Assembly: GCA_949358305.1 (NCBI GenBank)
Contig: OX442315.1
Span: 36,854,427-36,918,426, forward strand
DNA from: Strigamia acuminata
Lineage: Eukaryota; Arthropoda; Chilopoda; Geophilomorpha; Linotaeniidae
Direction of reading: 5' to 3'
DNA length: 64,000 bases
The first letter of the stretch is position 1, and each line of letters starts with the position of its first letter. Both the position numbers and the translations under genes were made by a program. Below are positions 9,322 through 61,711 of this stretch, in pieces. The notes under the pieces were generated by a model. That model did no database searches, had not been told where the DNA came from, and saw only the letters and a list, made by a program, of their open reading frames with translations.

Positions 9322-9323
9322 CG

Positions 9324-9341
9324 TGGAGGTCCCACCGAGAT
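9324..9341 (+). promoter_or_regulatory. tRNA-Gln-type primer binding site
   Basis: TGGAGGTCCCACCGAGAT begins two bases after the 5' LTR. It is the reverse complement of the 3' end of animal tRNA-Gln, including the CCA tail. This marks the start of minus-strand synthesis and confirms the plus orientation of the element. Confidence 0.85.
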
Positions 9342-12800: not shown

Positions 12801-12849
12801 TCTTCTTTATAAATTAAAGAATTAAAATCGTCAGATTTTGAATTTTTTT
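9840..12849 (+). other. Long AT-rich untranslated leader of the 9.4-kb element
   Basis: About 3 kb holds no long frame. A degenerate motif of the form TTTnnnTTnGAAAAGTTAAA recurs many times, for example near 9875, 10090, 10610, 11540 and 11880. The leader therefore looks like a decayed array of short units. Purine tracts AAGGGGGA occur at about 11661 and 12038. Function unknown; packaging or priming RNA structure is possible. Confidence 0.55.
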
Positions 12850-14331
12850 ATGGCTCAAAAACCATTGAATATGATCGATCCAAAAGGAAATAATAAGCAG
12901 ACAAACTTAAATTTAAGTTCTGTACCACTTGGCGATCAAACAGAAAAGATTCCCGATCATTTTACTCTGTATTGTAATCGTCATGGACTGGATAAAACCA
13001 AGTTTAAAAATATAATCGAAGCTTCAGACTATGTAAAAGCTAGGAACTGGCGAGATCGTACCCAATCTCAATCTTCACATCAAGATCCAGTACGGAATCC
13101 ACAAACATACAGCCGAAACTTAGTGAATCAAGATTCTCATACTATGTTTCAAACATCCAGTAGGGGATCTAAGTTAGAAAAGTTTAAACCACCTAATTCG
13201 GTAGATAAGGGGGAAGAGAATTATAAACCTAATAATTCTCATCCAGAGAGTTCGTTAACTAACCAGTCGGTTGTTCAGAACAAATTAAAACTCGTTTACA
13301 ATCGAGATCAGCTAATTTCAGTTCGATATGCTAATCCAGCTGAAGCACAACGATATGTGGCTAGCCTTAATCTGTCGATTAACCTACCGCTATCAAAAGA
13401 ATTGGGAACCGTAAACAAAAGTTTTGGGCCACCAATATCAACGCAAAGGAAAGATATTCGGACTCCAAACAAACATTTGCAGTCAAATAACGTACAACAA
13501 CGTGCCCGATCGCCGATCACAAACTCATGTTTGCGGACGTATGATTTGTCTACCAAGAAGAGTCCCCAGCCAAGACAATTCTACCTAACGCCCATTTCAA
13601 ATCGAAAAAAAGTCAAGCAAACTTTTCCCTTGAAAAAGTATTACCAACACGATAATGAGAATGATTTTAAACCTAAAAAAGAAAGTTTTTTGACTAACCC
13701 ACGGGAGATCCGGTATCAATTCGAACAGTATTGTAAACAATACCAGTTAAATTCAGCTGAATTTAAAAATATAAACGAAGCGCAACAATTCGTATTTCGA
13801 AATCAATACCGTAACCAACGACTAAAACCCGTCCCAGTCGTCAATCTGACGGAGATACAACAATTTGCGTCTGGAAAGCAACCCTGCAATATCCAGAATA
13901 ATTCATCTCAACGAGAGGAATTAAGAACTTCAAAAAAGCGTTTTCGGTCACCAAGTCCAGCTGGTGATGAAGAAACTTCAAATACAAACCAACATGTTCA
14001 AAAACTGACTGAAAACCCAGGTTTCCAATCATCAGTTCCACGACTTAGAGTCAAATATAGATCCCCTCGTTTGTTGCGGGATTTCACAATTCCAAATATG
14101 GGTCCTTTCCACGTATGGTTTTCCAATGAGGGTCCCATTCATGTATGGTTTTCCAGAGATGACCTAAAACAAAAAGTTGGGTCGTCACGGTCATTTACAC
14201 TGCCAAGTCAGTACACTGTATGTAACTGCCCAAAGGAAAAACGTCGAAAGAAATCAGTACAGCAGGCTGAGAGATCTCGGAAATTCGCAAATATGCGAGC
14301 TCAATATTTAGCAAAGAATCATGTTGATTAA
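12850..14331 (+). CDS. 493-residue basic protein with three internal repeats (LTR element ORF)
   Basis: This is the only long frame of the 9.4-kb element. The first in-frame ATG is at 12850; the open frame extends four codons upstream without ATG. A roughly 33-residue repeat occurs three times, at about residues 34-66, 141-174 and 286-318. Its pattern is F-x2-Y-C-x4-L-x4-F-K-N-I-x-E-A-x2-F/Y-V; copy 2 is the most divergent. Near residues 417-436 a nine-residue GPxHVWFS unit is duplicated in tandem. The C-terminus is very basic (KEKRRKK) and includes a CNC pair. The protein is rich in Asn, Gln, Lys and Ser. I find no Gag capsid region, CCHC knuckle, protease or polymerase. The FKN-EA-V pattern faintly recalls nucleic-acid-binding viroplasmin-type folds, but that is a guess. 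A packaging or structural role is inferred from position only. Confidence 0.75.
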   Translation: MAQKPLNMIDPKGNNKQTNLNLSSVPLGDQTEKIPDHFTLYCNRHGLDKTKFKNIIEASDYVKARNWRDRTQSQSSHQDPVRNPQTYSRNLVNQDSHTMFQTSSRGSKLEKFKPPNSVDKGEENYKPNNSHPESSLTNQSVVQNKLKLVYNRDQLISVRYANPAEAQRYVASLNLSINLPLSKELGTVNKSFGPPISTQRKDIRTPNKHLQSNNVQQRARSPITNSCLRTYDLSTKKSPQPRQFYLTPISNRKKVKQTFPLKKYYQHDNENDFKPKKESFLTNPREIRYQFEQYCKQYQLNSAEFKNINEAQQFVFRNQYRNQRLKPVPVVNLTEIQQFASGKQPCNIQNNSSQREELRTSKKRFRSPSPAGDEETSNTNQHVQKLTENPGFQSSVPRLRVKYRSPRLLRDFTIPNMGPFHVWFSNEGPIHVWFSRDDLKQKVGSSRSFTLPSQYTVCNCPKEKRRKKSVQQAERSRKFANMRAQYLAKNHVD

Positions 14332-14924
14332 CATGATATGATACACAAAGATTCCCCGATTATAGTGTAAACAGAAAATCCTCTTCTAAAAATCATGACC
14401 TCTCTTCTAAAGAAAAGGGGGACAAAATATAAAGTTAAAATTAACAATTCTCGAAAAGTAATATTACAGTATTAAAAGACAACTAGTTTAAATTAAAATT
14501 AGTCAATTGTACAAAGAATACCAAGTGACTCCGGTCATGACAATTAAGGGGGACATTTTGATTCTTAAATTGTCAACTCTTATCATCTAAAAGCTATTTA
14601 TTGTATATTTATAGCGATACATCTGACTAGGCATATGAAATAAATATTTTGTGATAACACAAATGATGATTTTATGTATGACGAAAGTTTCTTCAAAAAG
14701 AAGACTTGGAAATAAATTCTGGACTTGAATTTAGGCTATTAGAAAAGATTATTTCGGCAGAAAATCAGAACTTAGATAATTCAAGTTAGTTTATGTAAAC
14801 TCAAATTCGAAATTGGAAGTCACGGTATCTCCAAGATACATCAAGTCCGAAAATAGCATTTATGCTAATTAGGAGAATAACGAAAACTCTATAAAATATT
14901 ATATAGTTGTGTTATTAAGGGGGA
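14332..14924 (+). other. 3' untranslated part of the 9.4-kb element with repeated purine tracts
   Basis: AAGGGGGA-type tracts occur at about 14414, 14545 and 14917; the last abuts the 3' LTR and is the expected plus-strand primer. No coding frame is seen. Confidence 0.65.
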
Positions 14925-16838
14925 TGTATGACGGTTTACAATGGCTATAAATGCCTATTTTCTATCAAGAAAGCGCTGTTGCGCCAATATGATGGTATTT
15001 TTACAATATTCTGTGTAAAACTGATAAATGTCTAGAATAAAGTCATTTATGATGTTTCAAATACAAAGATGTTCGTTTATTAAGAATAAACACTAATTTC
15101 CACATGATACTAAAGTATCACGGCATAATTACGAAGATTCGTCTGCTAAAACCCGCATTTGTCAATGCTCCATATTGCCACTAGATGGCGCGATCGCAAT
15201 TAGCGATAAATTCGAATACGAACTTGAAAACCTCATGATTAAATATAAACGTATATTTAATCAAGTGAATAAATTGTGTTAAATATTAATATAAATATAT
15301 ATTAAGTATCTGACATTGTTAAATACAATGTAACTTCCATTTCTGCGGGACAGAATGTTTAGCGATCAATCGGTCAACCGATCAATCTGATTGGTGGAAC
15401 CCATTTCCGGTCCTGGGTATCCAGTTCCGGTTGTAACAAGGATTAGCATAATTTGCATAAATGCTCCTCCGTATCCACTTCCGGTGATACGGGATTGGAG
15501 GGATTCGTGGAACCCATGTTCCAATTGGATGACTGGATTAATCCTTAAATCCAGTCAGGTTATATAAACCCAAACAATCGGCCATTCCGCAGCTCTGTTT
15601 GATTATTTCTGTTTGGTATTGTTACTTAAGAAGTATGATTCGTTGTTCACGTAAAAAACCTTTTGGTTCTTTGTTGATTTATTCGCAAAGAACCGTTGCA
15701 TGATTCTACAGAATCATGCCACCGCCGGCAATTGAAGTCGAAGTGCTGGGATTATTATGTTGCATAAATGTTACAGTCTACGGTTGCGACGCCGAAGGAG
15801 AACCCGCCGTTGTGCAATTCAGTATCCTCCGGACAGGACCAAGTTGTCTTTTTCGGTATGAACGTATTCCGTTACCACGAGTAGCATCGGTATTGTTGAG
15901 AATCGGTTCCTTCACCTGATGGTGCCAAAGCAGTCTGTTTTACAGTAACCACGAGTAGCACCAAGTGTTTGGCAAGCTGATTCTCATGGTATTCGATGCC
16001 AAAGCAGTCGGTCTATTATTAGTACCGCGAGAGATAAAACTGCTGTGCGGAGCCGCGAGCTATCGACCCCTGTGTACGTGGTACCGTCAACCACTCGATG
16101 GACGACCGTGCTGCGACGCCGGGGACGCTTGATACCGTTCTGCATGGCAAGGCGTATATTCTAATCGATGGCAATTGTGTGTTGCGACGGGAAGCTTAAT
16201 CTTCATTTTATTTATAACAGCAAAACTTAAACTCGACAACCAGTTGGACCAAAATCAAGTCAGAAGACTTAATCTCATATTGAACTCAATATAACCGATA
16301 AGTTGACGACAACTTATTCCCGAAATATCTAAATAAGAATTCACAACGATATGAATTAAATATAATTCATAAGTGGAATATTGATAAGTAAATGAATACA
16401 TTTACTTACACCAATATCCTCCCAAAGTTGTGGCGGTGCAGACAAAGTCAACCGCAATGCTCAGATCATTCGATTTATCGACGTGCGATAGTTTACACAG
16501 CGAACCAAGGAAACCAGCGAAGCCGTATCGGACTCCAGGACACAGCCATCCGGCTTAAGATGACATCTATAATCAGGTCGAGCGATGGGGAAACCGCTCC
16601 CATATTCCAGACCCGTAGTGATATTATTCTAGGGCCAGTTGGCCAATTCTTTGTATAGTTTAATAGCTGATTTAACTTGCCAAATGTCGGCATTAGTCCT
16701 ATGTATAATTTAGCTCATCCATATTGTTTGCCAACAATAAACTGTCTTGTATTTATCTCGTATTGTATTCACTGTTTATTTATTGCGATCTCTTCCCGGT
16801 ACCATTGTTAAATGGGAGTTGTGGTCGTCACCGTCACA
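14925..16838 (+). repeat. 3' LTR of the 9.4-kb element
   Basis: Same length as the 5' LTR and apparently identical, including TATATAAA, AATAAA and the CCACTAGATGGCGC motif (15178-15191). Confidence 0.9.
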
Positions 16839-21464: not shown

Positions 21465-21542
21465 ATGAGCTCGTTCCATGGATCCACGGATAAAATCGTC
21501 GAATCCGGAATGGACTCCAGTTCAACGTCCATCAACTCGCAG
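21465..21542 (+). CDS. BRICHOS gene exon 1 (N-terminal cytoplasmic tail)
   Basis: The ATG sits in a strong context, CCACCATGA. The exon encodes 26 Ser-rich residues ending INSQ. Donor GTAAAC, phase 0. Confidence 0.75.
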
Positions 21543-24500
21543 GTAAACGAAATGAATTTTTCAATCAGTAACACGACTCGCACGTAACGGGAGATTTTCA
21601 TTTGTTTTTTTTTACACCATCTGACAACGTGCACGTGCTAACATGAATATTTATTTATTTATTTATTCTATTAAGGTTTAAGTTTACAACCTTTGCTCTT
21701 CTCGTGTATCATTTGAATGAGTGGTTTATTAACTCGACTTATATTCCGCGATGAAATGTTGCATAAAAGAATCCATAATATTATATTGTTTTGTTTCGGT
21801 TACATAAATCTGTTTTATTGTTGTGGGAAAATAATTTTAATTGAAATACATCTGGCCAGGTGGTTTATACTTATAGGGATGTTTGGATTTATAGGTGTTG
21901 TAACTGGTCTCTTCTATTGTTGTTGCGTGGACAATACCCACCACGTGCTCGTCGTGACGTTGAAATGATGCGAAAGGCTGAATGAAGTGAATTGATGGAA
22001 TAGAATAGAATGGATGCAAATGAGGTTGCGTGATTGAAATATTGAAATTTTTATTTTATTTTGTTTGAAATAGATTTATTTTATTTTATTATTTTTAACG
22101 TCTAAACAAAATTTGGAAGTCTGAAATTTAATTTATCAATTTACTCGATGTTCTAGTGGGTCTAGACATTTTTATTGTGACTTTTTTAATGATATTTTTT
22201 GGAGCAGTTATGGTTGGAAAGTATAAAGGGGGAGAATATCCCCTACTCATTTTCCCCCTTTCTTTCTCTTTCTTCCTGTGCCCTACTTGGACCACTTAAA
22301 CATACCTGTCACTTTTTCAGCATGTCTTTTCTGGAGGGAAACGATTTCAAACAAAAAGTCATTTTTTATTTTTATTTTTATATTTTTAAAAAATTACATT
22401 AAACCTAGGTCTATTTTTTGCTTTAAATTTATTCTAAGTCTAGAATTAAGTTCATGGTCTAATTCGGTTTTTTTATTTTTTATTTTTTTAAATGTCAAGT
22501 AAAAACTTGATTAAATGTTTAGAAAGAGGAAAAAATTGATTTTTATTTTGTCATTTTTGATCGTTATTTTTTTGGGTGTTTTTCGACTTGAGAAACTGAC
22601 AGGTTGTTAAGGAATGCTTCATGAGTTTGCTCTAATTTGTCAGGCTGAGCCAAAGTCAAAGTCAAGTTCATTTTTTTAAATAATATTAATTTTTAGGTTA
22701 ATGACTCGGATTAAGGCATTTTGAGTTTTGAATTGTGTAATTAGAAAGTTGAATAATTTCTTTAAAGGGTTTGTGACATGAAAATAAAAACTGTTAAGCT
22801 CGAGCAAACCTGTTTCCACTACAACTAATTTTGAACGACCACAATCTGCAACAACTGCAATTGCTCATTTTGCATTAAACGTGCAAACAATTTGGATAAA
22901 CTGTGGCGAGCGATGAGAAATGTGATGTTTGCAGCTGGACAAATAACAATTATGGCAAAGGCTGCACTGCAATGCATCAGCAGAAGAGATAAGTTACAAT
23001 TGCTGTTGAATTTCACCTGCACAGGAAATTCCACTGAAATTAGATTTGATTGGTTGAAATTGCACGTCTGTTAGCTGCCATTGTTATTCTTTGTTGCCTA
23101 TACGCGGGGAGATAGAAATCAAATGCCTTTCCGGCTTGAAAGTTGGGAGAACTAATGATTTGTTCTAATCTCTTTTATCTTGGCTCCTGCTGACCATGGC
23201 CTTCTCTACGTAATCGCACGGATCCCATGATGAGTTGATGACCAGTAGCACCAGTAGTGCAAATCGTTGGCAGTTGGGGAAAGTGTAGTTCAAGTGCAAC
23301 AGGAAAGAATAAGCAAATTTGAAATTCTGATCTTAAAAATGAAGAAATTATTGTTTTTGGTCTCGGTAGGGGTCGGGTAGTTAATCAATGTTTCCCACTT
23401 GGCAATTCAAATGAAAATTTTGCATTTTTGCATTTAATTGTAATTACTTTTTAAGTTAAGTTGTATCAAAATAATACTGAGAAATTAATGCAGTTACGCG
23501 ACAGACCAGTTGCACAGATTGCAACAATGCTAATGCAATGACTGATACCACAAAGTGTTGAGAAATAATTACAAAGAAAGTAATTAAATGCAAAATAGAA
23601 GTTTCTGTTGCGTTTACAAATTATAACCATATTGGCCTATGTTAAATGCTCGCACTCTTTGTATACCCTTTCTGCACTTTGCGCTAATTTCTTCTTGAAT
23701 GCAAGCAGAAATATCAGCACAAGGTGCAGAAACGATACATGCTAATGCAACGTTGCTAAGTGAAATCCACTTCGCAATGGTCTCCTCAAATTTGGCGTCA
23801 AGATACCGAGTGCAGACTGTATATTGTATCGCCAACCCTAATACTGCTATTAACGGTACAAGTCTGTATCCACCAAGCATACTTGGCAAAGTGTTTCTAC
23901 TAAAGCTCTCTGTACTTATTACACGTTCTTTTGCTCAAGTGCATGCATGCTGTTTGAACGTGATTGTTTCAACAAGAATTTGACACGGGAGGGAATAAAG
24001 CCTGCTTTTTAGTTTTGCAAAATCGAATTATTCAATATACTTGGAACACGGAACTTTTCATAAGAATTGTCAATACGAGAATACTTGGCTTCAGATATTA
24101 CTTCCTGGCTCTTGTTAGTCGGCTGCATTAGGATTGATTCATTTGCTTCATATCAAACATGGCATACTAGAGACACACACAAGTCACCCTTTTTGTCGAC
24201 GTGTATGCATGTTTACAATCAATGTAGTTAAAGTAATCTAAGTTACTGGATATGTACAAATCTATTTCAATTTCAAATTTTCTATTCTCTTATAACATGG
24301 AAAATGTAAGTGAAAATTGACAACTTGATATTTGAACAGAATTGCAGATAGAATTAATTATTTATTTCTAAACATGAGTTAATGAAATGGTTATACGAAT
24401 ATATAGGTATATTTTCCTATTTGTAGTTGCCATTTTCACCGGCTATACAACCTGAAAATCGTCGACTCAAAATCATAGCCGCCATCATCTTTGCTTTTCT

Positions 24501-26348
24501 GGTTTTGATCGCTGCAGCTGCTCTTGTGGGCATTTATCTGAGTCAGCCACCACCACCCCCAGAAGTTTATACAATTCGGTTAAAAGATCCAGATGCGTTA
24601 ACAGAATCATCACGATCTGTGCGATTAAAAGTGAAATATGATAAAATGTCCAAGGTGAGTGAGTAGTTTTTCTTTACGTATTTTCCATTGACTTAAACGA
24701 AAATTGTTTCGTTTTGAGGTTTGATTGTCACAAAAATTATGCAAGTTTGTATATTTTTTGTTTGGGTTGTAGATATTACGGTTTAAAAAGTTTCGATGCA
24801 ATTTCTTGTGAATTGTATTTCGACTTTACAAACACGTAGTGGCTAGGCAATGTTTGCTGTAAGGCGGCATTGTTGCCGCTGTTCACGGCCGTAGACAAAT
24901 AAACCTATTAAATTGATCTCATCTACTTGCACATTTCTAATAATTGTTTTATAAATTAAAGGTTGAGTACACTATGACGCCATCAGTGGACAATCCTGCA
25001 GAAATAATTTACATGCTGAAAGATTTCAGTAGGGTAAGATTTCATTTTCATTTTTAATAGTGCAATTTTTAGTTAAATACAGTTACATGCTAAGTGGTCT
25101 GGACAGATTTCATACGTGCGTTCAAAGTTCACAAAAACGACAGAAACAATTTAAACAAACTTTGAATACACCTAATGTTAAATTTGCTCTACTCCCATAT
25201 GCGGTTTAAAAGCTTCAACATTTGATATCACATTATTGAGTACACGATTGAAACGTTTCTGACCAAACATCAGGGAGATTGTTTAAATGGGAAATTTAAT
25301 GCTGCACAATAGAACTTTGTTGTGTTTGTGGTGATTCCGAATCACCTGAAGATAAATTGATAAGATTTATCGTGTTGATGAATCCGACCGCCAGGAGCGC
25401 TACTAGAAATAGACTAGATTGACTAGTCTCGCATTTCTGCGGATCTGAATAATCAGAATAATCTATATATGACGTCACTTCCGGTCAGTATATAAGACCG
25501 AAGCTTGACCGGAAATGACACTACAGTTACCACAATTCAGCAAGAGCACCACTTTCCTCACCTTTCAGGCCGTTTCATCGGATTGATCGAGGACCGGTGC
25601 CCGCTGATAAAATCAACTGTAAGCAACAAGCCGCATTTATTTAACGTGGCCAATCCACGTTAGAATAAATATCCGAATCTATCGTTTAATTCGCACGAAG
25701 CGAATTCCCGCGTGTTTGTTCGAAAACACGTGTCAACCGAACATAATTTCGGGACTAATCCACGATCGATACGAATCGCCAATCGATCGCCGAAGAAAAT
25801 CACGTACGCCACGTGTTCCGCAAGACGTATTCCACACGAAACGGATCTCGTTTAGTTTGGGCTCACCGAACGCATTGGCGAAAGAATTCTGCGCACCACG
25901 CGTACGGAACAAGACGGATTCAGTTTGGATTCAACCTAACACTTTGGCGGTAATTAACACGCGCGCCACGCGTCCCAAACGAAGTAGGCCTCGTTTGATT
26001 TCACATCCAAACTGCTAAGCGAATTGAGACTGACTCGATTCGCGAAGTGTAAAAAATATAACCCTAGACAACAACAGAAGCCACGTGTAAGTCTAAACAA
26101 TTGAGGGCTAATTGTTTAGCAACAACTCGTATTCGCAACAGGATCCGAGACCATCAATCATACATTTATCTGACTGTATTAATTATTCCTAAGTTAATAA
26201 TAAAGTGTATTGCTTGTCCCGACAAAGTATTTGTATTTCTTAACCACAAAGTCGAATCACGACACGTGGGGGCCCGTCCGGGATAGAATTTGCTAACCTT
26301 ACGACAAAACTGAGAAATACCGGGATATCGAAATTGTTTGAGTCAAAT

Positions 26349-26390
<42 letters not shown>

Positions 26391-29300
26391 TCGAAATTGG
26401 ATTCAAATAATTATGCAGCCACCGCTAGCGATCGTGAAACACGTTACAAGCAAAGACAAGAACGTGAACGTCAGGATGGAACGGTCTACGATCCACTCTT
26501 GACGCCGGAAGCTCGAATTCACGAAAACAAAGTTGAGACTAACTCGACTGAAATTCCAACAGAAGAAACTAACCCGATTGCAAAAAAGCTCCAGTTTTCG
26601 GGCAGAGAATTCGAAGGACCAGGAACCTCTCACGGAGAGAATATTTTCACTAAATCATTCGAAAACCCACCAATCCATAGCGACCACGATCCAACCAATG
26701 AGTTAGATAGCGACGAAATTCTAATCGAAGAAAACGGACAGGACTCACCTATCCATAGTTTCGACGATCCAAATGACCCAAACAACAGCGGATTAAACGA
26801 TGAAAACGACCGTCAAAACAAATTGAAACGATTAACGCTTCATCGTTCACTAACACCATCGATTTCGCTGCCAAATTCGCCACGGTCGATTCCCAAAAGA
26901 GATCAAATGACCCTCTTCAATAGTACGACCACAACACAAACCGCAATATTGCGCGAACGAGCCCGAGCAAATCAGGCAAGGCAAGAAAAGGCGGCAGATA
27001 GACGAGCCACATTCGAACGCGAAATAGCTCGAGAAATAACAGAAAAACGAGCCGAAATGGAACATGAGATTGCTGATCAGGCGAGAATAGACGCCTTGGA
27101 GGAGAGAAAGGCTGAATTAATGGAAGAACTAGCCAAAGAGCACCGCAAAAAAGTCACCGCAATGGAACAAGAAATAGCTCGCGAACGTCAAGCGAGGCAA
27201 ACAGCCGCCGCCAAGGAGAGTCAAGAAAAACAAATAGTAATGGAGCGAGAATTGGCCCGAGAATTACTAGCAAAACAAAGAATCATCGAACGAGAAATGG
27301 CAAGAGATCATGAAATCCAGCCATTAAGCAATGGGTTGGGTCAACGCTCGGAGACAAACTCCTTGCAGAATTCCCCAGAGCGATCCCCTTCAGCAAAGGA
27401 GTTAGTAGCAAAGGCCATCGAAGTGACGCGAGTGGCTTGCGCTCACGGTATCGAGATAGATCAGGATAAGGACCCTTACGAAGAATTAAGTAGGGTGATC
27501 GATCTGGTCAACGAGAGAACGGAAAAACGAACAGCCGAAAACTCTACAAATCAAGAAGAGAAACGGTGCCGGGTCAATTCAACTCAACCCCCGGTCAAGA
27601 AAAACGACGAGCAAACTTCAGACAGCGAAAGCATCGACTCTCTGACATCTCACCTCAGTATCCGAGTCACCGGACTAGACAGTATCGTAAACGAATCGGA
27701 CGAAGTCAAGAAGGAACTCTACGAGGCGTTTATACAAGATAGAAGAAATAATCAGGGTGCTGAATCATGGGCAATGAAAAACTCATTCGCAATGAAAACT
27801 GGCCAAACCAGTAATACTAACCCAAGCGACCCTAACGCCGAACTAATCAGATGTATAAATCAAAAGAACCAGATACGAAACAAAGCAGGTCGTAATAAAC
27901 TAGCCATGCCGACGCTCGAGGAGATTAATGCCGTTAAAAACCACCTCGAAAAGAAACACGCCGCCGAAGCATATGCTGGGAGAGACTCCTACGTTTTTAT
28001 CAAAAAAGTGGACGGAGCCCTCACGGGGACCCGACTGGACGATCTGATACCGCCCGGAACAAAGTTGAGCCGAACCTCCGCTCCAGAGAAAGCGAACCCC
28101 GATAACTCAACCATAGCGCAAGACCTCGCGAATAACCCGAACACCGCGGGATCATCAGGACAAACGTCGTTCCAACACAATCAATTCGGACTGACGGGCA
28201 ACGGTACGCATTACCCAAGCCTCCCTTCCGACAATCCACGATCATCACCGCTGCTTAGTGAGACTGACTCGCTAAGCAACCAACTACGGACGATGAAAGA
28301 CGAACTCCTTCGGGCCATGGACCAAAAACTTCAACAAAGCCGTGGCCAAGAGATCGAGGAAGACGATCGAAGCGAAGTATTGTTGAAACGTTACTCCGCG
28401 GACCGATGGCTGTATTCTCGCAAGGATAACAACATCAAGTGGACGACCCTGAGACTAATTAAGTTCGACGGATCCTGGAACGCCGGCAACTTGTTTTTGG
28501 ACGAAGTCGCCCTGACGATTAATCGTTTGGGAGCGGAACCCGACGAAATGGTTTCACGCGGGATACCAGAAATGCTGATAAATCGAGCCCGAAACTGGTA
28601 CGCTGATGTCCAACCCCGAAACTGGGAAGACTTCGTCATAAAGTTCCACAACCAATATGGCGAGACGAGCCAGGAAATCCAGAAAAGAGTAAGCTCTATG
28701 AAGCAAGCTCCCGGGGAAACTCTGAGAGAGTACGTACAACGAGCCGACAGCCTGTTCCGTGAAATGGACAAACCATTTGACCAACACGCTCAGAAAGCTC
28801 TCTTCGAACAAGGACTAAACGAAACCGCAACCAAAGTCCTACGAGAAATGAACGCTCCTAAAGGAGATAATTTCAAAGCCATCCTAGCTTTCGTCGAGAA
28901 AAAACACACCGAAGTAAATGCTCGGTATAACGAAAATCTGACAAAAGAAGAACGAGCTCTAGGAGTGGCTCGACAGCAACGAATACAGGAGCGCAGCATA
29001 GACTCAACTAAGCTGCTCCAATCACGGAATTACCTAAACGGAAATATCGAACCACTTCTATCAAAAAGGAATAATAGCGGGTCAAACCCCATACCGCCTC
29101 CTGGGAACGCTTACCAAACAAAGACGTCTAGTGCTGAGGATAGATCGGAAGACCATTTAGATTTGATCTCGTCTTCTTGTTACAGAGAGTACACGAAGGG
29201 ACCAGTCAACCGAGAGGGAGGAAAGAGCGGTCCCTGCAACTTCTGCCGGGAGGACGGCCATTGGCGACAGGATTGTCCTGAACGAGCAAAGCAAAAAGTC

Positions 29301-32300
29301 AACGAAAAAGTTGCAGAGCGAGAAGAATTGCTGAAAATGCTCGGTAAAGAACAAGAGAGAATCATGAAGGAATTCACCGCTAAATTTGACAACATGGCAA
29401 AAAACTGGCGTTCGCAGGCGGAATAAAGATAACTCCGTCTGCGCAAATCTCGTCACCCATAGATTTCGAACTAATCAAAAAACTAATCACCAAGCTGAGA
29501 AAAAACTCAGCAGTCCAGCGATACTGGAATAACCAGTTATCCCCAAGACTAAGGCCAGTTATGTTGACCTATTTTAAAAATTTGAGTATCTCTCGTTCTC
29601 ATTTTAAATTCATCACAAAAAGTTTATTCAGATGTAAATTATTTCATAAAATAAGTAGTTTTCTTGGCCAACCTGCAAACGTTGGTTTGGTCCCGATAGT
29701 TTATTCTTGGGGAGGGACGTGTGGTGATTCCGAATCACCTGAAGATAAATTGATAAGATTTATCGTGTTGATGAATCCGACCGCCAGGAGCGCTACTAGA
29801 AATAGACTAGATTGACTAGTCTCGCATTTCTGCGGATCTGAATAATCAGAATAATCTATATATGACGTCACTTCCGGTCAGTATATAAGACCGAAGCTTG
29901 ACCGGAAATGACACTACAGTTACCACAATTCAGCAAGAGCACCACTTTCCTCACCTTTCAGGCCGTTTCATCGGATTGATCGAGGACCGGTGCCCGCTGA
30001 TAAAATCAACTGTAAGCAACAAGCCGCATTTATTTAACGTGGCCAATCCACGTTAGAATAAATATCCGAATCTATCGTTTAATTCGCACGAAGCGAATTC
30101 CCGCGTGTTTGTTCGAAAACACGTGTCAACCGAACATAATTTCGGGACTAATCCACGATCGATACGAATCGCCAATCGATCGCCGAAGAAAATCACGTAC
30201 GCCACGTGTTCCGCAAGACGTATTCCACACGAAACGGATCTCGTTTAGTTTGGGCTCACCGAACGCATTGGCGAAAGAATTCTGCGCACCACGCGTACGG
30301 AACAAGACGGATTCAGTTTGGATTCAACCTAACACTTTGGCGGTAATTAACACGCGCGCCACGCGTCCCAAACGAAGTAGGCCTCGTTTGATTTCACATC
30401 CAAACTGCTAAGCGAATTGAGACTGACTCGATTCGCGAAGTGTAAAAAATATAACCCTAGACAACAACAGAAGCCACGTGTAAGTCTAAACAATTGAGGG
30501 CTAATTGTTTAGCAACAACTCGTATTCGCAACAGGATCCGAGACCATCAATCATACATTTATCTGACTGTATTAATTATTCCTAAGTTAATAATAAAGTG
30601 TATTGCTTGTCCCGACAAAGTATTTGTATTTCTTAACCACAAAGTCGAATCACGACATGTTTACATGGTATTTGCAATTGTTGACAAAGGAAAGTTGTTG
30701 TTGCCACAGTGTAGGCTTGTTTGAACAATAAAGGCCTGTCAGTGTTTTATTGGTCTTTAAACCGATGAAGGAGTTATTAAAGATAAAAGATTTCTGCAAA
30801 CACCTTTTTTGATTAGATAAAATTTAGAAGAATTAAAAATTCTTTATAAATTATTCAGTTGGTGGGTTAATTGTACGTCCAAACAGAAGTTGAAGCTAGC
30901 AATGAAAAAAATGTTAAACCTTAGTTAAAGGCTTCATTGCCTCGCGATAGCGAAATGGATTCTCCTTATCAAGGAGAATGCAGTGGAATGGATGGTGCAA
31001 TAGGTTGGATATGTAATAATAATCGACGAAACATCCTTTTATCACGTACCAGTGTGGCCATTTCCCGCATGAAAATGAAATTCCACCTCTTTTCCAAATT
31101 TAGTTTGGCTGCCATTGTCAGATTTCCAACTCATTTCTGGCCTGCAAATCGAGTGCAAAGCAGAGTGACATTTGAAAGTCAGCTGTTCATTGCCGTTGTA
31201 AGGATGCATTGAATGACATGGATGTACTACAATATACCAGTATCTATTCGTACACCGTAGGTATCAATAAGGGATTTCATAAATGACACGCTGAAGGTGC
31301 TGAAGTGATTTATCCAATAATCACAATCACTGCACTAACTTATTATTGAGGACCCACGCCAGGTCCTAGTGATTATTTTGCCTGTCACATGACTTTTATT
31401 TATACTTTATTTTTTATTTTACTTTATTTATTTTATTTTTTTATTTGTTTATTTATTTAATAATTTACAACAAACTCTCTTTTTCTGAGTTTAAGCATTC
31501 TTCAGCACTAACAACTCTTTTTCAGACGATTATACATAAGCGCTGAAGTGCTGAAGCGATTATTTATGTGATTGGTCCACATGATTAAAGATCCATGATA
31601 ATCGCTTCAGCAGAATAATCGTCAAAATCACTTCGGCGCCTTCAGCGTATCATTTTTGAAACCTCTTATTGTTCAATAGGTGCATTCTAATTTCTAAGTG
31701 GTTCTTTATGTCGTTTTTGGCAAATTCTGGCTAGTATCGCTGTGAAAAGAACATTGAAAGCGTTAAAGAGAGTTTTGCTTGCACATTTCATTTGTGCTAA
31801 TACAATTTCTAAGCAGTTTAAGAAAAAGCAGTTTTCATAAATTTTCTTTTGTCTACTTTTTGCTGAGCTGTGACTCTGAGCAGAGCACACTTTTTTCTAA
31901 CCGACTTCGGTGTTTGAAATGTGCTCGGCTCGGGATTCAATAGAGCGCATCTATACTGGTTCAGTGCCATGAATGAGAACTAGAAAGAAGAGTGTAGAGG
32001 GATGTTAGACGTTTCAGTCCCTGACACAGTTTGAAATTTGCAACCTCGTCCTTTTGTCTTCTTCCTCTTCCTCCCTCTTAGCTATACACGCTTCCTTAAC
32101 GCCCTGCTTGTCTTTGCTCTGCTTCTTCCTTGTTATTGTCATTGGGTTATTGTCCCATGTGCACAAAGCATTCTTATACTGCTCACATTTTTATTGCTAC
32201 TTCTTCTCAGCTTTAGTTTTAGGGATTTAGGCTAATGATGAATGCTATCAAGTAAGCTGGAATAAATCGTTAATGCTATAACTCGAAAAATGAAAAAATG

Positions 32301-35300
32301 GAAAAATAGAAAAATCCAAGCACTAAATTCCAATTTTTGCACGAGCAAACACAAAAGTTTAAAATTTTTTATCGCACACGAGTGACCAGTGATGTTATCC
32401 TTTATTACGTCCAAAAATCGTGTATTTGTACAGATTTTTCAGTTTGATTTTGGCGTCAAGATACCAGACTGAATTCAGCTGGTAAAGAATGACAGTTAGT
32501 CGTATTATTCAAAATGGCATTCGAGGGAATTGTTTTAAATTTCTTCATTTGATTGTATTCACTTTCTTTAAAACGACTATTTTTTGATACGAATCACTTC
32601 CTTGCGTTTGGAATTGCTTTGTAAAAATGCTATTAATTTTAGTACAGAAATGACACGCGTCGTTTATTGTTTCAAATTCTGCCAGTCATTTTGCCTTAAA
32701 GAAAAGAAAAGAAAAGAAAAGGTGTTATCATTTACCACAAGTAATAGTAATACAATGGAATGCTAAGATTTACTTTCAAAAAAAGAAAAGAAAAAGAAAA
32801 ACAACTTGTTTTATAAATGTAACATTTATCAGGATTTTATTTATATATAGATTTATTAATGTACAGTATTAATTACAATGTTAAATGAAAGTAGATAAGT
32901 TAAAGAGTTAAAAAGGTTTTAAGTTTTATGATAATCCATTCAATTGTTACGGTAACATTTCTGTTTAGATTTCATCTGTAGCTTGTAGCTGCATTCAACA
33001 ACTCATTTAGTATACAGTAGTAAAAAGAGAATATATTCAAAAATGCCAAAAACCGTATTTAAAATTGTAGTTTGACTTACTTTGTGTCTAAACATGAAGC
33101 GCATGCGCACTGCTACTGAAAGCGGACTGATTTGGCTGCCATTTTTTAACCAAATTGGCAAATTCACATTCTAAATTCAAAGTTTCCATCCTAAGAGATT
33201 TGAATTCTCGTACTTGTACATCGTTGAGAATTGAAATTGACTAATCTCAATTTTTTTTTTCTTCTAAAAATGTTGATTACTTTAACGGTGAATATTTTTC
33301 TTTTGTTTCATTTCTTAATGAGGCATTGTACATTGAAAATTGATGGTTGTAGTTCAGTAATTATAATAACATTTAATTTCAAGGTCTTTGTCAATGTCCT
33401 GTCCAAACTTCATTTTATCAGTGTTTATCACATTCATTACAATATTCATATAGAAGAATAGATGATGTTTTGAGATTAAAAGAAATTGCTGACATATTCT
33501 TATCAACAAGTTCATTGTCATCATAGGGTCAGTTTTGATGGACTCTTAAATTTAAAATTATGCTGATGCAAAAATTGTGTGCATTTTTGAATTCCATAAA
33601 TTTGGGTCAGGATTTTATTGACCAATATATAAATAGTTTTTCTTTCAAAAGTTTATCGATTACTACGATGCATTATTCTAAGAAAATTCTGTTGTTGCAA
33701 ATAGCCTTGGATTGACTAATTCAGTATACGGATGCTGTGACGGGAGGCTAATTGTAACAATTTTCAAAGTTATTTCATTAGCAGACAATGGTAAATATCT
33801 TAATCTCATTATGTAATTTTGTTCTTTATTTATTTTTACAGGCTCTGGTGGTTCACAAGGATTTTAAACGAGGATTGTGTTTAGTCGGCCGTTTAAATGA
33901 CACAGAGGACAGCGCTAAGCAACGAGCCAAGGCCTTTAAAGTAAGTGGATCAAGGATCTTCAGCTATAGTTTAATTTCATGTCCCTCACATCATTCAATA
34001 CTGGTTTCTAGACAATAAAAACTTGGTGTGTGTCTGTGGTATTCACTTTGAAGGTCACAAACATGCTCAAATCAGGGTCTTCCTTCTTCCCTTTCATTGA
34101 ACAGGAAGAAATTTTTAAAAAAAATAATCAATTCAATGCCAAATGATGATGAAAACGGTGAATTAATTATTCATTACAATGGTCTTGTTTATTCATGTAT
34201 TTGTGGTGTATTTATTACCGGTCGTTGCTCTGTCAATTTCTCACGACTGCAATGAATGCAAAATTATGCAGATCATGTGAACTATTACTACAATTAAGAT
34301 TGATGTGTTTCGTGAGCTTGATTTGAATGGATTGCAATGGATGTGGCTGGATATCGTTGGATGGAATCGGACACGAGGCATCACGTACGGGAATATTTGC
34401 ATAAGTGTTTATTCATAGTCGAAATACATAGGTGGCGAAAATTAACATGAAAGAAAATGGAATGCCGAACGCTCCAAAGATGGTCCACAGATTTATACCA
34501 GGGCTGTGGATATCTTTGTTGAGTGCCCCTCACCTCACTTCACCTCAACTCACCTCACTTATCCCCATGCTGCTTTTTGATGCAAAGATTTAATTTGAAT
34601 TACCGGTACTGTAATGTGTATTATCCGTCAGTCTGCTGTATGACATTCAAAATGAAAAATTTTAACTTTTGGGAGTTCACCTCGGACAATGTACACTTAC
34701 TGTAAAACCAAAAAAATCTTTACATTTTCCCACGAAGGCAGCACAGAATAAGGTGAAGATTTTATTGGCCGTAGGTGCACTACGTATTGCTGGCAATAAA
34801 AATTAATTATAATAATAACAGAAATTTTCACTATTAAAACCGTATCGTGGAATGCTGGTACTAAATGAGAATTTAAGAAATCAATGCAACGGTTGAATGT
34901 TTTATGATCAATTTGATATAAAATTTCTATAAGAAAAAGAAGGCAACGTCTGCTGCCAGGGGAAAATAACATGGCGTTTTAAATTTAACCTAACCTAAAC
35001 TTGCTAGGTATATTCTTCAACTCATTTAGACTGAACAGCATTTTAAACAACGTATTTAAACTGCTTTTTAAACTGCTCATATCAATGTAATTTAAAAAAT
35101 GGCGGTCAATTCGGTATGTTATCAGTCGGTGGGCATGCGCATGAGCATGACATTTAACCAACATCTTTAACTGCAAGTTAAACATGCATTTGTGGATGTG
35201 TCTGTAATACAGTACTGTCTTACACAACTGAACGCAACAGAAAGATAGTTTGTTACGAGTAAAGCTTTACTAGTAAACTCAGGTTGTAAACATCTTACTT

Positions 35301-38300
35301 GTTAGTGATGAATTGAAAAGTTTTTTTTCTTTTAATTGAAGTCAACAGGATTTAAGTAAATAATTGATTTCAGTTCATCCGTAGTTAAACACACCACAAG
35401 AGTGGTTCATTTACTCAATGAAAATTAACGAATAAAACATTTCTTTTCTAAAGTAGATAAATCTCTGTACAGAATTTAAACAAATTTATCAAAAGGTTCT
35501 CCTAAGGGATTTTTTTGTTGTTGATTTTGCATAAGAAAATAGCTGTTCCCTTTGGCTTAATTTAGCTGTTGGTTCAGTTCAATGTACCTATTTTTTCTGA
35601 AGAAATAAATAATTATTGTTTACGTACCGTAGTTAAATATGAATTTAAAAAACAAATGGATTTTTAGTTTCTAGTTTTTTTTGTTACAAAAAGTTTTGTT
35701 TTTACAAAAAAAATAAAAAAAACCAAAAAAGGTACACTACTTAATAATAACAATTATTGCCTAGTATATCCAGGAACCAGGTCATAATTAATTTAGAAAA
35801 ACTGGGTCCACTGGGAATTTTCCATTGACTCACAAACCTACTTTTTGTTTTATTTATTTATTTATTTATTTGTTGTATTTATTATCTAAATGCAATATGT
35901 TTAGTCAGAAAGAAAGTTTATGTTGTCTATTAAATTGAAACTTGACCCACTTTTCCGCATTTACAGAATAAACAACTACAGATTGCGAGCACCGAACAAT
36001 TTCTCATCGTCAGCGGCACAGTGCATTCCGAAGTTCTCGAATTCACCGCTGGATGGCGAGTGGCGCGATACTGTGGCTCTTTACCCGCTCACTGGGTCGT
36101 GAGATTTGAACCCCCTGTTCATCTGCCCGAAGTTGAGCATGCAACGCAGAGAGAACCTGTCGAAGTAGAAAGTATGCCTCCAACTTCGATTCACGAGCAA
36201 CCAGGTGAAGAGGAAAAAATGCAGGTGAAAAAAAAAATTATTGCGATGCAATGACCTAATTTGATTGTTTAACATTTCTTTTGATTTCTTTTACATTATT
36301 ATTTTCAAAATTAAAAACATAAAAAAAAAAAAAAAAAAAAAATACACGTAGAAAGTATTTGGTAATGATATCTTAAAGTCGTTTACGACTCACGCCTCAT
36401 TGCGGAAGAGGTCACAGATTAAGCAATGTATAAGCAAAAGAAAAGCTTTGCCCAACCCGCCCATGTCACTGAACTTTTGTTTCAAAAGTATGCGGTGATT
36501 AAGATTTATTTTATTTTTATTTGTTTTTACTGAAGTGATAGTAAAAATCACTACAAATTATTTTCAAATGCAAAACCAGCCATGTGTCATTCTTTGGAAT
36601 CTTGGGAATCCTCTGGAATCTTGGGAATTCTCTGGAATCTTGGGAATCCTCTGGAATCTTGGGAATCCTCTGGAATCTTGGGAATCCTCTGGAATCTTGG
36701 GAATCCTCTGGAATCTTGGGAATCCTCTGGAATCTTGGGAATCCTCTGGAATCTTGGGAATCCTCTGGAATCTTGGGAATCCTCTGGAATCTTGGGAATC
36801 CTCTGGAATCTTGGGAATCCTCTGGAATCTTGGGAATCCTCTGGAATCTTGGGAATCCTCTGGAATCTTGGGAATCCTCTGGAATCTTGGGAATCCTCTG
36901 GAATCTTGGGAATCCTCTGGAATCTTGGGAATCCTCTGGAATCTTGGGAATCCTCTGGAATCTTGGGAATCCTCTGGAATCTTGGGAATCCTCTGGAATC
37001 TTGGGAATCCTCTGGAATCTTGGGAATCCTCTGGAATCTTGGGAATCCTCTGGAATCTTGGGAATCCTCTGGAATCTTGGGAATCCTCTGGAATCTTGGG
37101 AATCCTCTGGAATCTTGGGAATCCTCTGGAATCTTGGGAATCCTCTGGAATCTTGGGAATCCTCTGGAATCTTGGGAATCCTCTGGAATCTTGGGAATCC
37201 TCTGGAATCTTGGGAATCCTCTGGAATCTTGGGAATCCTCTGGAATCTTGGGAATCCTCTGGAATCTTGGGAATCCTCTGGAATCTTGGGAATCCTCTGG
37301 AATCTTGGGAATCCTCTGGAATCATTAATTCACGCAATCACAATTTGTCTGGAGAATAATTTGGAGTGTTTTGTACTTTATTTATTTTCATTTATTTATT
37401 CAAGTTTTTGCCCCTTAGAAATCCTAGAATAACTTTACGTTGGCTTCTCCCAATTTGACCAATAGCACTTTTGCTTAGTACTTTGATATTTTATTTTTTA
37501 TGATTACCGCCACGACAAAAATGGTGTCTGTGATATTTCCAGTCCAGTTATGTATCCGTAACAGTACTGGAATTGGTAAAATTTCACTAACTACCACTAA
37601 AAATGCTTTCGCTTCCGACCTCCTAGATTAATTATTGTGCACCTACAATCCTCGACCATTTAAGGGTTAATGAATTAAAATTATTAAATTTTACTCGTAG
37701 ATTTTAACGGATTCGTTGACACCAAAGGAAAACAAAGAAGCCGAGAGATTACCGCCAGACCCTGCTCTTATCCAAAGAGCGGAGGACATTGCAGTACTGG
37801 AGGAGAAAACTTCCATCTTGGCTGAAAAACTAGATCTTCCTGGAGAGACAATTAGGCCTAGTTTCGAAGGACCACCGGTTGTGGAGAAGTTAGCCATGTT
37901 GGAAGAAAAAATACCTCACGAATTGATCCCGGCTATCTTCGAAGAAAATGGCGAAGGAAAAGATGGTTTGACAGACGATGGAGATACCGGCCTATTGTAT
38001 TCCGAAAAACTTTTGTTGGCAGATAAATTAATAGAGGATAGAACAGAAAATGTAAAATCTAGTGCAGATGAGAAATCAACTGTGGAAAAAGGTCACGAGG
38101 ATTCGTTTGCATTGCAGAATAATTTACCGTCGTCCACAGATTTTCCTCATTCAACCGCTACTTCGCTACATGAAGAAAAATATCCTAGTAGTACTAGTAA
38201 AGGTGAATACATTACATACAATGCTTTTTTTATTGGGGTAGTAATAGCTGTTAGTTTTTGACCACATAATTTTACAAATAGAAAATGACTAACAATTAAG

Positions 38301-38494
38301 GATTTTGAATTTTGAAAATATCAGAAGTTGAATTATTTTATCTTTATTGGCTGATTCTTAATTTATTTTATATTTATTATTTTGTTCTAGATAAATTTGA
38401 TACGAGAAGAAAACGTTCAGCATGCGATGTGCATTGTTGGTACTACATCAGAAAAACAAAGGGATACAAAAGATGTTTTAATAAATGTTTTTAA
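21465..38494 (+). CDS. BRICHOS-domain type II membrane precursor with a furin-released cysteine hairpin peptide (7 exons)
   Basis: Exons: 21465-21542, 24427-24654, 24962-25033, 33842-33940, 35967-36224, 37701-38202 and 38391-38494. All introns are GT-AG and all phases agree, giving 446 residues. Residues 1-41 are a short cytoplasmic tail ending in RRLK; 42-64 are a membrane anchor; a poly-Pro stalk follows. A BRICHOS domain spans about 75-203, with its two expected cysteines at 139 (GLCLVGRL) and 195 (ARYCGSLPAHWV; compare the CGEVPLYYI end of lung surfactant protein C). Residues 204-416 are an acidic linker. RRKR (418-421) is a furin-type site. The last 25 residues carry four cysteines as C-x3-C-x12-C-x3-C, with net charge about +5. 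BRICHOS domains chaperone a hydrophobic or beta-prone C-terminal segment in the secretory pathway, and annelid arenicin-type precursors share this order. Antimicrobial activity is inferred, not shown. Confidence 0.85.
24427..24654 (+). CDS. BRICHOS gene exon 2 (membrane anchor)
   Basis: Acceptor TTTGTAG, donor GTGAGT, phase 0 at both ends. It encodes residues 27-102: the hydrophobic segment IIAAIIFAFLVLIAAAALVG, five prolines, then the first BRICHOS strand (EVYTIRLKD). Confidence 0.85.
24962..25033 (+). CDS. BRICHOS gene exon 3
   Basis: A 72-base exon, phase 0 at both ends (acceptor AAAG, donor GTAAGA). It encodes 24 residues including EIIYMLKDFSR, the segment before the first BRICHOS cysteine. 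Confidence 0.8.
25327..26264 (+). repeat. 5' LTR of the gag-only element
   Basis: It holds a palindromic CRE, TGACGTCA (25470-25477), 11 bases before a TATATAAG box (25489-25496). Inverted CCGGTC/GACCGG segments surround the TATA box. AATAAA lies at 26199-26204. The 100-codon frame from 25716 is not supported as a gene. Confidence 0.9.
26267..26284 (+). promoter_or_regulatory. tRNA-Pro-type primer binding site
   Basis: TGGGGGCCCGTCCGGGAT begins two bases after the 5' LTR. It differs by one base from the site complementary to animal tRNA-Pro. A perfect version occurs at 59935. Confidence 0.85.
26388..29426 (+). CDS. gag: Gag polyprotein of the pol-less element, 1012 residues
   Basis: The ATG at 26388 directly follows a 38-base A run. 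The first ~190 residues are polar and acidic. A long charged coiled coil spans about 190-310 (repeats such as EREIAREI and MEQEIARERQ). A variable middle part follows. A retrotransposon Gag capsid-type region lies at about 685-840 (ARNWYADV, then WEDFVIKFHNQY, then LREYVQRADSLFREM). One CCHC zinc knuckle is at about 950-963 (CNFCREDGHWRQDC), with a final Glu/Lys-rich helix. It should assemble particles and bind element RNA in the cytoplasm. It is unusually long for Gag, mainly because of the N-terminal coiled coil. There are no internal stops, so it is probably still functional. Confidence 0.93.
29720..30657 (+). repeat. 3' LTR of the gag-only element
   Basis: Apparently identical copy of the 5' LTR, preceded by the purine-rich primer tract and followed by the TGTT target duplication. 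Confidence 0.9.
31265..31671. mobile_element. Foldback MITE in intron 3 of the BRICHOS gene
   Basis: The first 46 bases, starting CAATAAGGGATTTCATAAATG, are repeated inverted at the end (31626-31671) with about seven mismatches. The repeats also contain the pair CGCTGAAGGTGCTGAAGTGATT and its complement. The interior is T-rich. No transposase is present and the target duplication is unclear. Confidence 0.7.
33842..33940 (+). CDS. BRICHOS gene exon 4 (first BRICHOS cysteine)
   Basis: Acceptor TTTTTACAG, donor GTAAGT, 33 codons, phase 0 at both ends. Encodes HKDFKRGLCLVGRLND and a helical AKQRAKAFK tail. Confidence 0.85.
35967..36224 (+). CDS. BRICHOS gene exon 5 (end of BRICHOS domain)
   Basis: Acceptor TTTACAG, donor GTGAAA, 86 codons, phase 0 at both ends. 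It encodes the second BRICHOS cysteine within VARYCGSLPAHWV, then the start of the acidic linker. Confidence 0.85.
36591..37323. repeat. 19-bp minisatellite, about 38 copies
   Basis: The unit TCTGGAATCTTGGGAATCC repeats almost without error, with one variant base near 36629. It lies in intron 5 of the BRICHOS gene. The unit is itself two related halves (GGAATCTTG and GGAATCCTCT). Since 19 is not a multiple of 3, all three plus frames cycle through the same peptide and stay open; the minus strand also has an open frame. These frames are repeat artefacts, not genes. Confidence 0.97.
37701..38202 (+). CDS. BRICHOS gene exon 6 (acidic linker)
   Basis: Acceptor CTCGTAG, donor GTGAAT. The exon is 502 bases: phase 0 in, phase 1 out. 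The 167 residues are rich in Glu, Asp, Lys, Ser and Pro, with repeated LEEK/AEKL/ADKL heptad-like segments. No cysteine is present, so the four cysteines of the C-terminal peptide can pair only with each other. Confidence 0.8.
38391..38494 (+). CDS. BRICHOS gene exon 7 (furin site and mature cysteine peptide)
   Basis: Acceptor TTGTTCTAG after a T-rich tract; the phase-1 G from exon 6 completes a GAT codon. The exon encodes DKFDT-RRKR followed by 25 residues beginning SACDVHCWYYIRK and ending CFNKCF, then TAA at 38492-38494. The whole mature peptide is therefore on one small exon. Confidence 0.85.
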
Positions 38495-38985
38495 TTGTTT
38501 GAAATTTTAAATCTAAAAAAAAATATGTTTTCTATAAATATCTCAGGTTGTTACCCAGCGAATTTATGATTATTGTTGTCACTAGTTGGAAACCCATCAA
38601 TAATGATGGGAAGGGGAAATAATAAGACGTTTGAATTTGATTTAGCTTGGTGAGGCCGACGTAGGGTGGCGCTAGCGCACGTTAGCGCAGGCGCAGTGTT
38701 ACGGTCCAATAAACATTGCAATGCCTACTGTGGTCTAAAAAATGCTGATTACCATAAATATAAATGCAATGTAAAAATTCAAATTTTAATTCACTTTTCT
38801 GTTGAATTGGAATTCACTTTTCTGTTGAATTGGGATTCACTTTTCAATGATTTTTACATTGAATTTGAATTTACAAGGATCAGCATACTGTTTGAATTCA
38901 ACAGAAAAATCACCTGAACCATGTTGATTTGTCTGCACCTTGGTGAAGCAGACACCACTTAAAATGAAAATTTACTTGAGTTTAA

Positions 38986-49623: not shown

Positions 49624-49716
49624 TGTATTCTGCTACTCGGGCGAATCGGTTACATCCATGTGTTGCCAGATGCCAGCCCCAGCTAAGCACCGCCCATTCG
49701 CAGCCCCTCACCTTGT

Positions 49717-61570: not shown

Positions 61571-61606
61571 AGAAGAATTCGATGCGACGATAGACGGAAC
61601 GAATAG

Positions 61607-61711
61607 ATGAAAAGTTAGATGAAAAGTTAGATGAAAAGTTAGATGAAAAGTTACATGAAAAGTTAGATGAAAAGTTAGATGAAAAGTTAGATGAAAAGTT
61701 AGATGAAAAGT
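61607..61711 (+). repeat. 12-bp tandem repeat GATGAAAAGTTA
   Basis: Eight to nine nearly perfect copies lie in the leader of the 2.4-kb element; one copy has C for G. A further roughly 40-bp direct repeat containing GATTCGCTGGAACA and GTTAGCCGA occurs at about 61790 and 61947. Confidence 0.9.

What the first reader, a model, noticed from the sequence alone, without database searches (positions are those of the whole stretch)
21465..38494. Arthropod-type BRICHOS precursor ending in a cationic four-cysteine hairpin peptide
Seven exons join in consistent phase into anchor - BRICHOS - acidic linker - RRKR - 25 residues with C-x3-C...C-x3-C, net charge about +5 and aromatic residues (WYYI) on the putative strand. 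This is the precursor layout of annelid arenicin-type antimicrobial peptides, where BRICHOS chaperones the beta-hairpin. Such a gene in an arthropod-like genome would extend that system, or reveal a secreted signalling peptide of the same build. Seen: motifs and splice signals. Known: the BRICHOS-peptide arrangement. Inferred: activity.
Basis: partly seen in the sequence, partly recalled or inferred. Interest (0 to 1): 0.88.

Follow-up and report, generated by a model that had tools for sequence, protein, structure and literature searches.

The report
Centipede BRICHOS precursor with four-cysteine peptide
A centipede gene looks like a membrane-anchored precursor in which a chaperone-like BRICHOS domain precedes a small, positively charged, four-cysteine peptide at a cutting site, a layout known for marine-worm antibiotics, though what the peptide does is untested.

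Summary
Seven GT-AG exons (21465-38494, +) join in phase into 446 residues: short tail, membrane helix, divergent BRICHOS domain, acidic linker, RRKR, and 25 residues with C-x3-C-x12-C-x3-C and net charge +5. No transcript could be checked. The BRICHOS call is weak (17.4 bits, E 0.0051, cut-off 25), but the three hallmark residues are there, with the Asp-to-Cys distance of 16 seen in this genome's ITM2 gene. The host is the centipede Strigamia acuminata (scaffold lengths). No second copy was found. ITM2 is a separate gene whose C-terminal peptide has no cysteine. 'Arenicin-type beta-hairpin' is not supported: two single-sequence AlphaFold runs gave helix-loop-helix at modest confidence, and the cysteine spacing also fits alpha-hairpinins. 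Best reading: a type II BRICHOS proprotein from which a furin-type protease frees a two-disulfide cationic peptide, most likely for defence, with signalling close behind. A new variant of a known kind. No other arthropod could be searched, so conservation is unknown.

The parts
21465..21542 (+). exon 1, residues 1-26, start of the cytosolic tail; CCACCATG start context
   Evidence: ATG to GT donor, phase 0
24427..24654 (+). exon 2, residues 27-102: rest of tail with RR, membrane helix (residues 40-65, bases 24466-24543), Pro-rich linker
   Evidence: mean hydropathy 3.18 over 19 residues from residue 42; RR just before it
24962..25033 (+). exon 3, residues 103-126: start of BRICHOS, hallmark Asp123 (25022-25024)
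   Evidence: best of 6 loose in-frame candidates; Asp123 is 16 residues before Cys139
33842..33940 (+). exon 4, residues 127-159: BRICHOS middle, hallmark Cys139 (33878-33880)
35967..36224 (+). exon 5, residues 160-245: end of BRICHOS with hallmark Cys195 (36072-36074), then start of the acidic linker
   Evidence: Pfam BRICHOS ends at residue 202
37701..38202 (+). exon 6, residues 246-412: acidic linker (residues 205-421 net -23)
38391..38494 (+). exon 7, residues 413-446 and stop
   Evidence: one 100% match in the genome, at this place
38405..38416 (+). RRKR, furin-type cleavage site, residues 418-421
   Evidence: the only RX[KR]R in the protein
38417..38491 (+). 25-residue cationic peptide, residues 422-446, C-x3-C-x12-C-x3-C, net +5
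38708..38713 (+). first polyadenylation-like signal (AATAAA or ATTAAA) after the stop

Best explanation
This is a centipede gene, with no second copy found, for a type II membrane proprotein. The N-terminal tail is cytosolic and one helix anchors it. In the ER lumen a divergent BRICHOS domain (one disulfide, Cys139-Cys195) shields the C-terminal peptide until its two disulfides form, and the acidic linker masks its charge. A furin-type convertase then cuts after RRKR421 and frees a 25-residue cationic peptide with two disulfides, probably nested C1-C4 and C2-C3. The exon chain, the hallmark residues and the motif are shown by sequence. Topology, chaperoning, cleavage and disulfide pairing are inferred from named BRICHOS families. 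The likeliest use is host defence (about 0.4 given release), with a signalling ligand at about 0.35. The stated confidence is for the proprotein and release mechanism, not for the use.
For: Open 446-codon frame over seven GT-AG exons. Pfam BRICHOS over nearly the whole profile. Asp-to-Cys distance of 16, the same as in this genome's ITM2 (junction there chosen by hand) and as D144/C160 of human ITM2A (PMC2751770, passages). The protein's only six cysteines are the two of BRICHOS and the four of the peptide, so the peptide's four most simply pair with each other. RRKR occurs once, directly before the peptide. Annelid BRICHOS antimicrobial precursors have an acidic proregion and a dibasic cut before a cationic C-terminal peptide (PMC6265681, passages; PMC10745061, one section), and some have a membrane anchor. 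Alvinellacin pairs C1-C4 and C2-C3 (PMC4002450, passages).
Against: Pfam score below the curated cut-off; no BRICHOS hit for the separate exons. No transcript or proteomic support for any junction. Poor acceptor scores for exons 2, 3 and 6. No conservation test: the search for homologous proteins was off and G000 has no relatives held. 215 residues lie between BRICHOS and RRKR, against about 9 between BRICHOS and KR in the genome's ITM2. No kB-like site within 1 kb upstream.
Confidence: 0.62

Rival explanations
1. Signalling ligand: the freed peptide is a hormone or growth-factor-like ligand for a receptor, and BRICHOS only helps it fold. (Shares the release mechanism with the best explanation.)
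For: No paralogue found, whereas effector families often duplicate; no kB-like site upstream; a modest net charge of +5. The S. [quoted passage not shown]
Against: No C-terminal Gly for amidation; the peptide is cationic and aromatic like defence peptides; I recall no hormone with this cysteine pattern (recall, no call).
Confidence: 0.25
2. Tissue protein in the manner of chondromodulin or tenomodulin: a type II BRICHOS protein whose C-terminal cysteine module acts in the matrix or at the membrane, cut or uncut.
For: Anchor, BRICHOS, long linker and C-terminal cysteines are the layout of those families, whose C-terminal part has four strictly conserved cysteines (PMC2751770, passages). The end of this BRICHOS reads C-G-x-L-P-x-x-W, which I recall (no call) as resembling chondromodulin more than ITM2.
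Against: The module is only 25 residues long and strongly cationic, with a furin site right before it; no meaningful sequence match to a solved structure.
Confidence: 0.2
3. Exon 7 is not part of the main product: the protein ends by reading into intron 5 or intron 6, and the peptide belongs to a minor isoform or is not made.
For: Exon 6 reads on in frame into intron 6 for 19 more codons ending in a hydrophobic tail, and exon 5 reads on for 9 codons to a stop.
Against: RX[KR]R plus a C-x3-C...C-x3-C tail appeared 0 times in 60 simulated 64-kb sequences but does so here, in phase, behind a usable acceptor and donor. No AATAAA or ATTAAA lies in intron 6.
Confidence: 0.15
4. A helical-hairpin toxin-like peptide (CS-alpha-alpha) used in venom or secretion.
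For: AlphaFold2's best models have two helices, each holding one C-x3-C. The 4C motif of alpha-hairpinins is CX3CX4-20CX3C (PMC11591084, passages), and scorpion venom has peptides of the CS-alpha-alpha class (PMC11722136, passages). Centipedes are venomous (general knowledge).
Against: No second copy found; a type II BRICHOS precursor instead of a signal-peptide toxin precursor; Foldseek found nothing significant.
Confidence: 0.07

Closest known systems
BRICHOS-related antimicrobial peptide precursors of annelids (arenicin, alvinellacin, capitellacin, nicomicin, HfBRI family)
   Same: Hydrophobic anchor (signal peptide or membrane helix), BRICHOS, acidic proregion, basic cut site, short cationic C-terminal peptide, often with one or two disulfides.
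   Different: Arthropod host; 215 residues between BRICHOS and RRKR; 12 residues between the inner cysteines; predicted helical instead of beta, at modest confidence; activity untested.
ITM2 / group A BRICHOS proteins of insects and nematodes
   Same: Membrane-anchored BRICHOS proteins with a C-terminal piece; in the centipede's ITM2 it follows KR, and the Asp-to-Cys distance is also 16.
   Different: The centipede's own ITM2 lies on C10, scores 66.2 bits for BRICHOS, and its 25-residue C-terminal piece has no cysteine and net -3. One direct comparison of the two regions gave BLASTP E 0.63.
Chondromodulin / tenomodulin
   Same: Anchor, BRICHOS, long linker, C-terminal cysteine module (PMC2751770, passages).
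   Different: The module here is much shorter and cationic; no membership test by tree was possible.
Alpha-hairpinins and scorpion CS-alpha-alpha peptides
   Same: CX3C-X12-CX3C falls inside the CX3CX4-20CX3C rule; best models are helix-loop-helix.
   Different: BRICHOS is not mentioned in the passages read on these peptides; the motif is also compatible with beta-hairpins, so it does not decide the fold.

Membership tests
BRICHOS domain (PF04089) | Profile score over the curated cut-off of 25 bits | tested here: not met
   13.9 bits with the whole protein, 17.4 bits with the region alone; the genome's ITM2 reaches 66.2
BRICHOS domain (PF04089) | One Asp and two Cys conserved across the superfamily, Asp-to-first-Cys distance of 16 in ITM2A | tested here: met
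   Asp123, Cys139, Cys195; rule from PMC2751770 (passages)
BRICHOS domain (PF04089) | Beta-sheet flanked by two helices | not testable with these tools
BRICHOS-related antimicrobial precursors (annelid type) | Anchor, BRICHOS, acidic proregion, basic cleavage site, cationic C-terminal peptide | tested here: met
   with BRICHOS itself below the Pfam cut-off
BRICHOS-related antimicrobial precursors (annelid type) | Beta-hairpin mature peptide (common, not universal: nicomicin and HfBRI-28 are helical) | tested here: inconclusive
   AlphaFold2 best model helix-loop-helix in 2 of 2 runs; propensities favour strand
BRICHOS-related antimicrobial precursors (annelid type) | Groups with the annelid AMP clade in a tree; kills microbes | not testable with these tools
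   No relatives searchable; no assay
ITM2 / group A | Close to ITM2 in sequence | tested here: not met
   The clear ITM2 is another gene; one BLASTP between the two regions gave E 0.63
ITM2 / group A | The C-terminal cysteine pair is absent (group A) | tested here: not met
   Four cysteines here; none in the genome's ITM2
Alpha-hairpinin / CS-alpha-alpha | CX3CX4-20CX3C and helix-loop-helix | tested here: inconclusive
   Motif met; fold only from single-sequence models of pLDDT 68.9 and 73.5; no significant PDB match

The most novel reading that the evidence does not exclude
Arthropods have their own BRICHOS peptide system beside ITM2: a membrane-anchored BRICHOS precursor that folds and delivers a two-disulfide cationic defence effector, perhaps with a helical instead of a beta hairpin. 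BRICHOS would then be an animal-wide prodomain for cystine-rich defence peptides, and this would be the first such effector in a centipede genus whose genome paper found no antimicrobial peptide homologues.
Probability: 0.25. Interest if true: 0.8.

Novelty: new variant of a known kind. Interest (0 to 1): 0.6.

Why it matters
The BRICHOS-chaperoned antimicrobial peptides named in the passages I saw are from annelid worms ('marine animals'). The Strigamia maritima genome paper states that no antimicrobial peptide homologues were identified (PMC4244043, passages). A BRICHOS precursor with a cut-ready cationic cystine peptide in this genus gives a concrete candidate and lets one ask whether BRICHOS became a peptide prodomain once in animals or repeatedly. 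If the client is helical, it also bears on which clients BRICHOS can serve.

Tried and rejected
Homologue search over public proteins: not possible, the database is off. Pfam on single exons: no BRICHOS. Genome search with the Pfam BRICHOS model: nothing at E 0.001; 4 fragments at E 10, none of them in this gene. Two are exons of ITM2 on C10. One (C1, 19.2 bits) lies in a stretch whose frames look retroelement-like by eye, and one (C3:24697225, 16 bits) I took for chance; neither was followed beyond translation. A second match to the peptide (C3:26434906, 36% identity, E 0.106, a stop inside) I took for chance. Solved structures by sequence: none for the whole protein or the peptide; three matches at E 1.5 without meaning for the BRICHOS region. 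Foldseek and VIA-align with the peptide models: nothing, or E above 6. NCBIfam: only weak unrelated hits, best E 0.013; Pfam for the peptide: one hit at E 1.3. Weak Pfam hit to the SP-C propeptide (E 0.23, residues 6-66) not used. Promoter kB scan: none. RNY frame test: uninformative. Odorant-binding family: no match, but the controls rang nowhere either. Paper search for six short peptide strings: 0 papers.

Reading: of 13 papers with BRICHOS, 'antimicrobial peptide' and 'arthropod' I saw passages of 4; of 21 with BRICHOS and 'insect', passages or a section of 7; the rest only as listings. Of 425 papers with BRICHOS 40 were listed. The mixed searches list only 15, 40 and 15 of 87, 6,224 and 1,040 papers; none of the 15 holds BRICHOS, which does not exclude papers lower down. 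BRICHOS with insect and Hymenoptera: 0.
Full report
Identity of the genome. The window lies at C3:36854427-36918426 of a 237,517,015-base genome in 157 contigs. C1 is 66,985,994 bases, C3 37,788,348 and C10 10,363,448. The genome note of the centipede Strigamia acuminata gives 237,534,282 bp in 158 scaffolds, a longest scaffold of 66,985,994 bp, chromosome 2 of 37.79 Mb and chromosome 8 of 10.36 Mb (PMC10556566, passages; found). The missing 17 kb and one scaffold may be the mitochondrial genome (inference). The TTAGG pattern has 7,401 forward and 11,514 reverse matches against 8 and 13 for the reversed control, beginning at base 1 of C1, and Chitin_bind_4 gave 54 matches over the cut-off. So 'arthropod-like' is right, and the animal is a geophilomorph centipede.

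The gene. Seven exons with GT-AG introns join to 446 codons. Exon 3 did not appear with strict thresholds and was the best of 6 candidates with loose ones. It carries Asp123, which stands exactly 16 residues before Cys139 of exon 4, as in the centipede's ITM2, and that supports the exon 3-4 junction. The Pfam match runs through exons 3, 4 and 5, which supports the exon 4-5 junction. The junctions 1-2, 2-3, 5-6 and 6-7 rest on splice signals and phase only. The acceptors of exons 2, 3 and 6 score poorly in a generic matrix whose values I set from general knowledge. The best hydropathy window starts at residue 42 (mean 3.18), behind RR, which predicts a type II anchor.

The BRICHOS domain. Alone it scores 17.4 bits, E 0.0051, over profile positions 8-91 of 91; the cut-off is 25. 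Single exons score nothing, and the exon-by-exon genome scan lists 4 fragments at E 10, none in this gene. Against shuffles the picture is fair but not overwhelming: 0 of 10 hit BRICHOS, 1 of 10 hit something else at E 0.041. What tips the balance is the hallmark set: Asp, Cys, Cys are the only residues completely conserved in the superfamily in Hedlund et al. (PMC2751770, passages), and all three are present (Cys-to-Cys distance 56 here, 60 in the ITM2). I treat the domain as BRICHOS, divergent.

The C-terminus. RRKR is the only RX[KR]R in the protein. The 25 residues after it hold four of the protein's six cysteines and net +5; the 217 residues from 205 to 421 have net -23. The tail motif occurred once in the window and 0 times in 60 simulated windows; the looser form (any four cysteines) is expected 0.48 times per window by chance. 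Exon 6 can also read on into intron 6 and exon 5 into intron 5, so other C-termini are possible. The first polyadenylation-like signal after the stop is at 38708 and there is none in intron 6.

Fold of the peptide. AlphaFold2 on 33 and on 30 contiguous residues gave helix-loop-helix in the best model both times (mean pLDDT 68.9 and 73.5, pTM 0.30 and 0.28). Without an alignment this is weak. Simple propensities favour strand, and the helical and strand moments do not decide. The spacing C-x3-C-x12-C-x3-C satisfies the alpha-hairpinin rule (PMC11591084, passages) and is, from recall, also a spaced-out version of the annelid and horseshoe-crab beta-hairpin pattern.

Surroundings and paralogues. 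No second copy was found: matches of the whole protein (7), of the BRICHOS region (3) and the strong match of the last exon are this gene's own exons; these searches score only the best candidates. The genome's other clear BRICHOS gene is ITM2 on C10: joined by hand from its exons, it scores 66.2 bits and ends in VKR plus 25 residues without cysteine and with net -3. That fits group A of Hedlund et al., in which the C-terminal cysteine pair is absent. So this centipede has at least two BRICHOS genes, and of these two only the one studied here has a cystine peptide.

Mechanism. By analogy with BRICHOS proproteins in general (PMC10182729, passages; PMC9627735, passages and one section), the domain would keep the C-terminal segment from aggregating in the ER until it is folded, and a convertase would then cut at RRKR. 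Host defence is the first guess for the freed peptide because charge, aromatic residues and precursor plan match the annelid peptides, because S. maritima has the Toll and IMD pathways but no identified antimicrobial peptide homologue (PMC4244043, passages), and because two-disulfide cationic peptides of about 17-22 residues are a known defence format (PMC13001179, passages). Against it stand the lack of paralogues, the missing kB-like site upstream and the absence of any assay. A signalling ligand is nearly as likely.

Odds.

Verdict. As a candidate second BRICHOS system in arthropods it is worth a quick test by RNA-seq and by searches of other myriapods, which were out of reach here.

Noticed in passing
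window 25327-30500: An LTR-type element lies in intron 3 of the gene: 300-base stretches 100% identical at 25327-25626 and 29720-30019, with one open gag-like frame of 1060 codons (weak CCHC zinc knuckle) and no pol noticed. Identical ends suggest a recent insertion.
   Followed up: partly
window 7500-15316: A second pair of identical 300-base direct repeats 7517 bases apart (7500-7799 and 15017-15316, the first cut at the start of the stretch searched), with a 501-codon open frame at 12826-14328 that matches no Pfam family at E 0.1.
   Followed up: partly
window 36595-37323: A 19-bp unit repeated 38 times at 99% identity sits in intron 5 and is open in several frames on both strands, an easy source of false gene calls.
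   Followed up: no
window 49204-49632 (-): DM-domain exon of a DMRT-type gene (Pfam 83.1 bits) on the opposite strand, about 11 kb downstream; 47726-48445 (-) may be another exon of it but has no Pfam match.
   Followed up: partly
L008 about 930-2010 (G000:C10:8581333-8582413): The centipede's ITM2 gene: its C-terminal piece after KR is 25 residues, acidic and without cysteine, as reported for group A and unlike the vertebrate ITM2 families.
   Followed up: yes
window 61604-63510: A 12-bp repeat array (61604-61733) just before a 555-codon open frame (61846-63510) with no Pfam match at E 0.1; the stretch 62001-64000 is purine-rich on the + strand.
   Followed up: no
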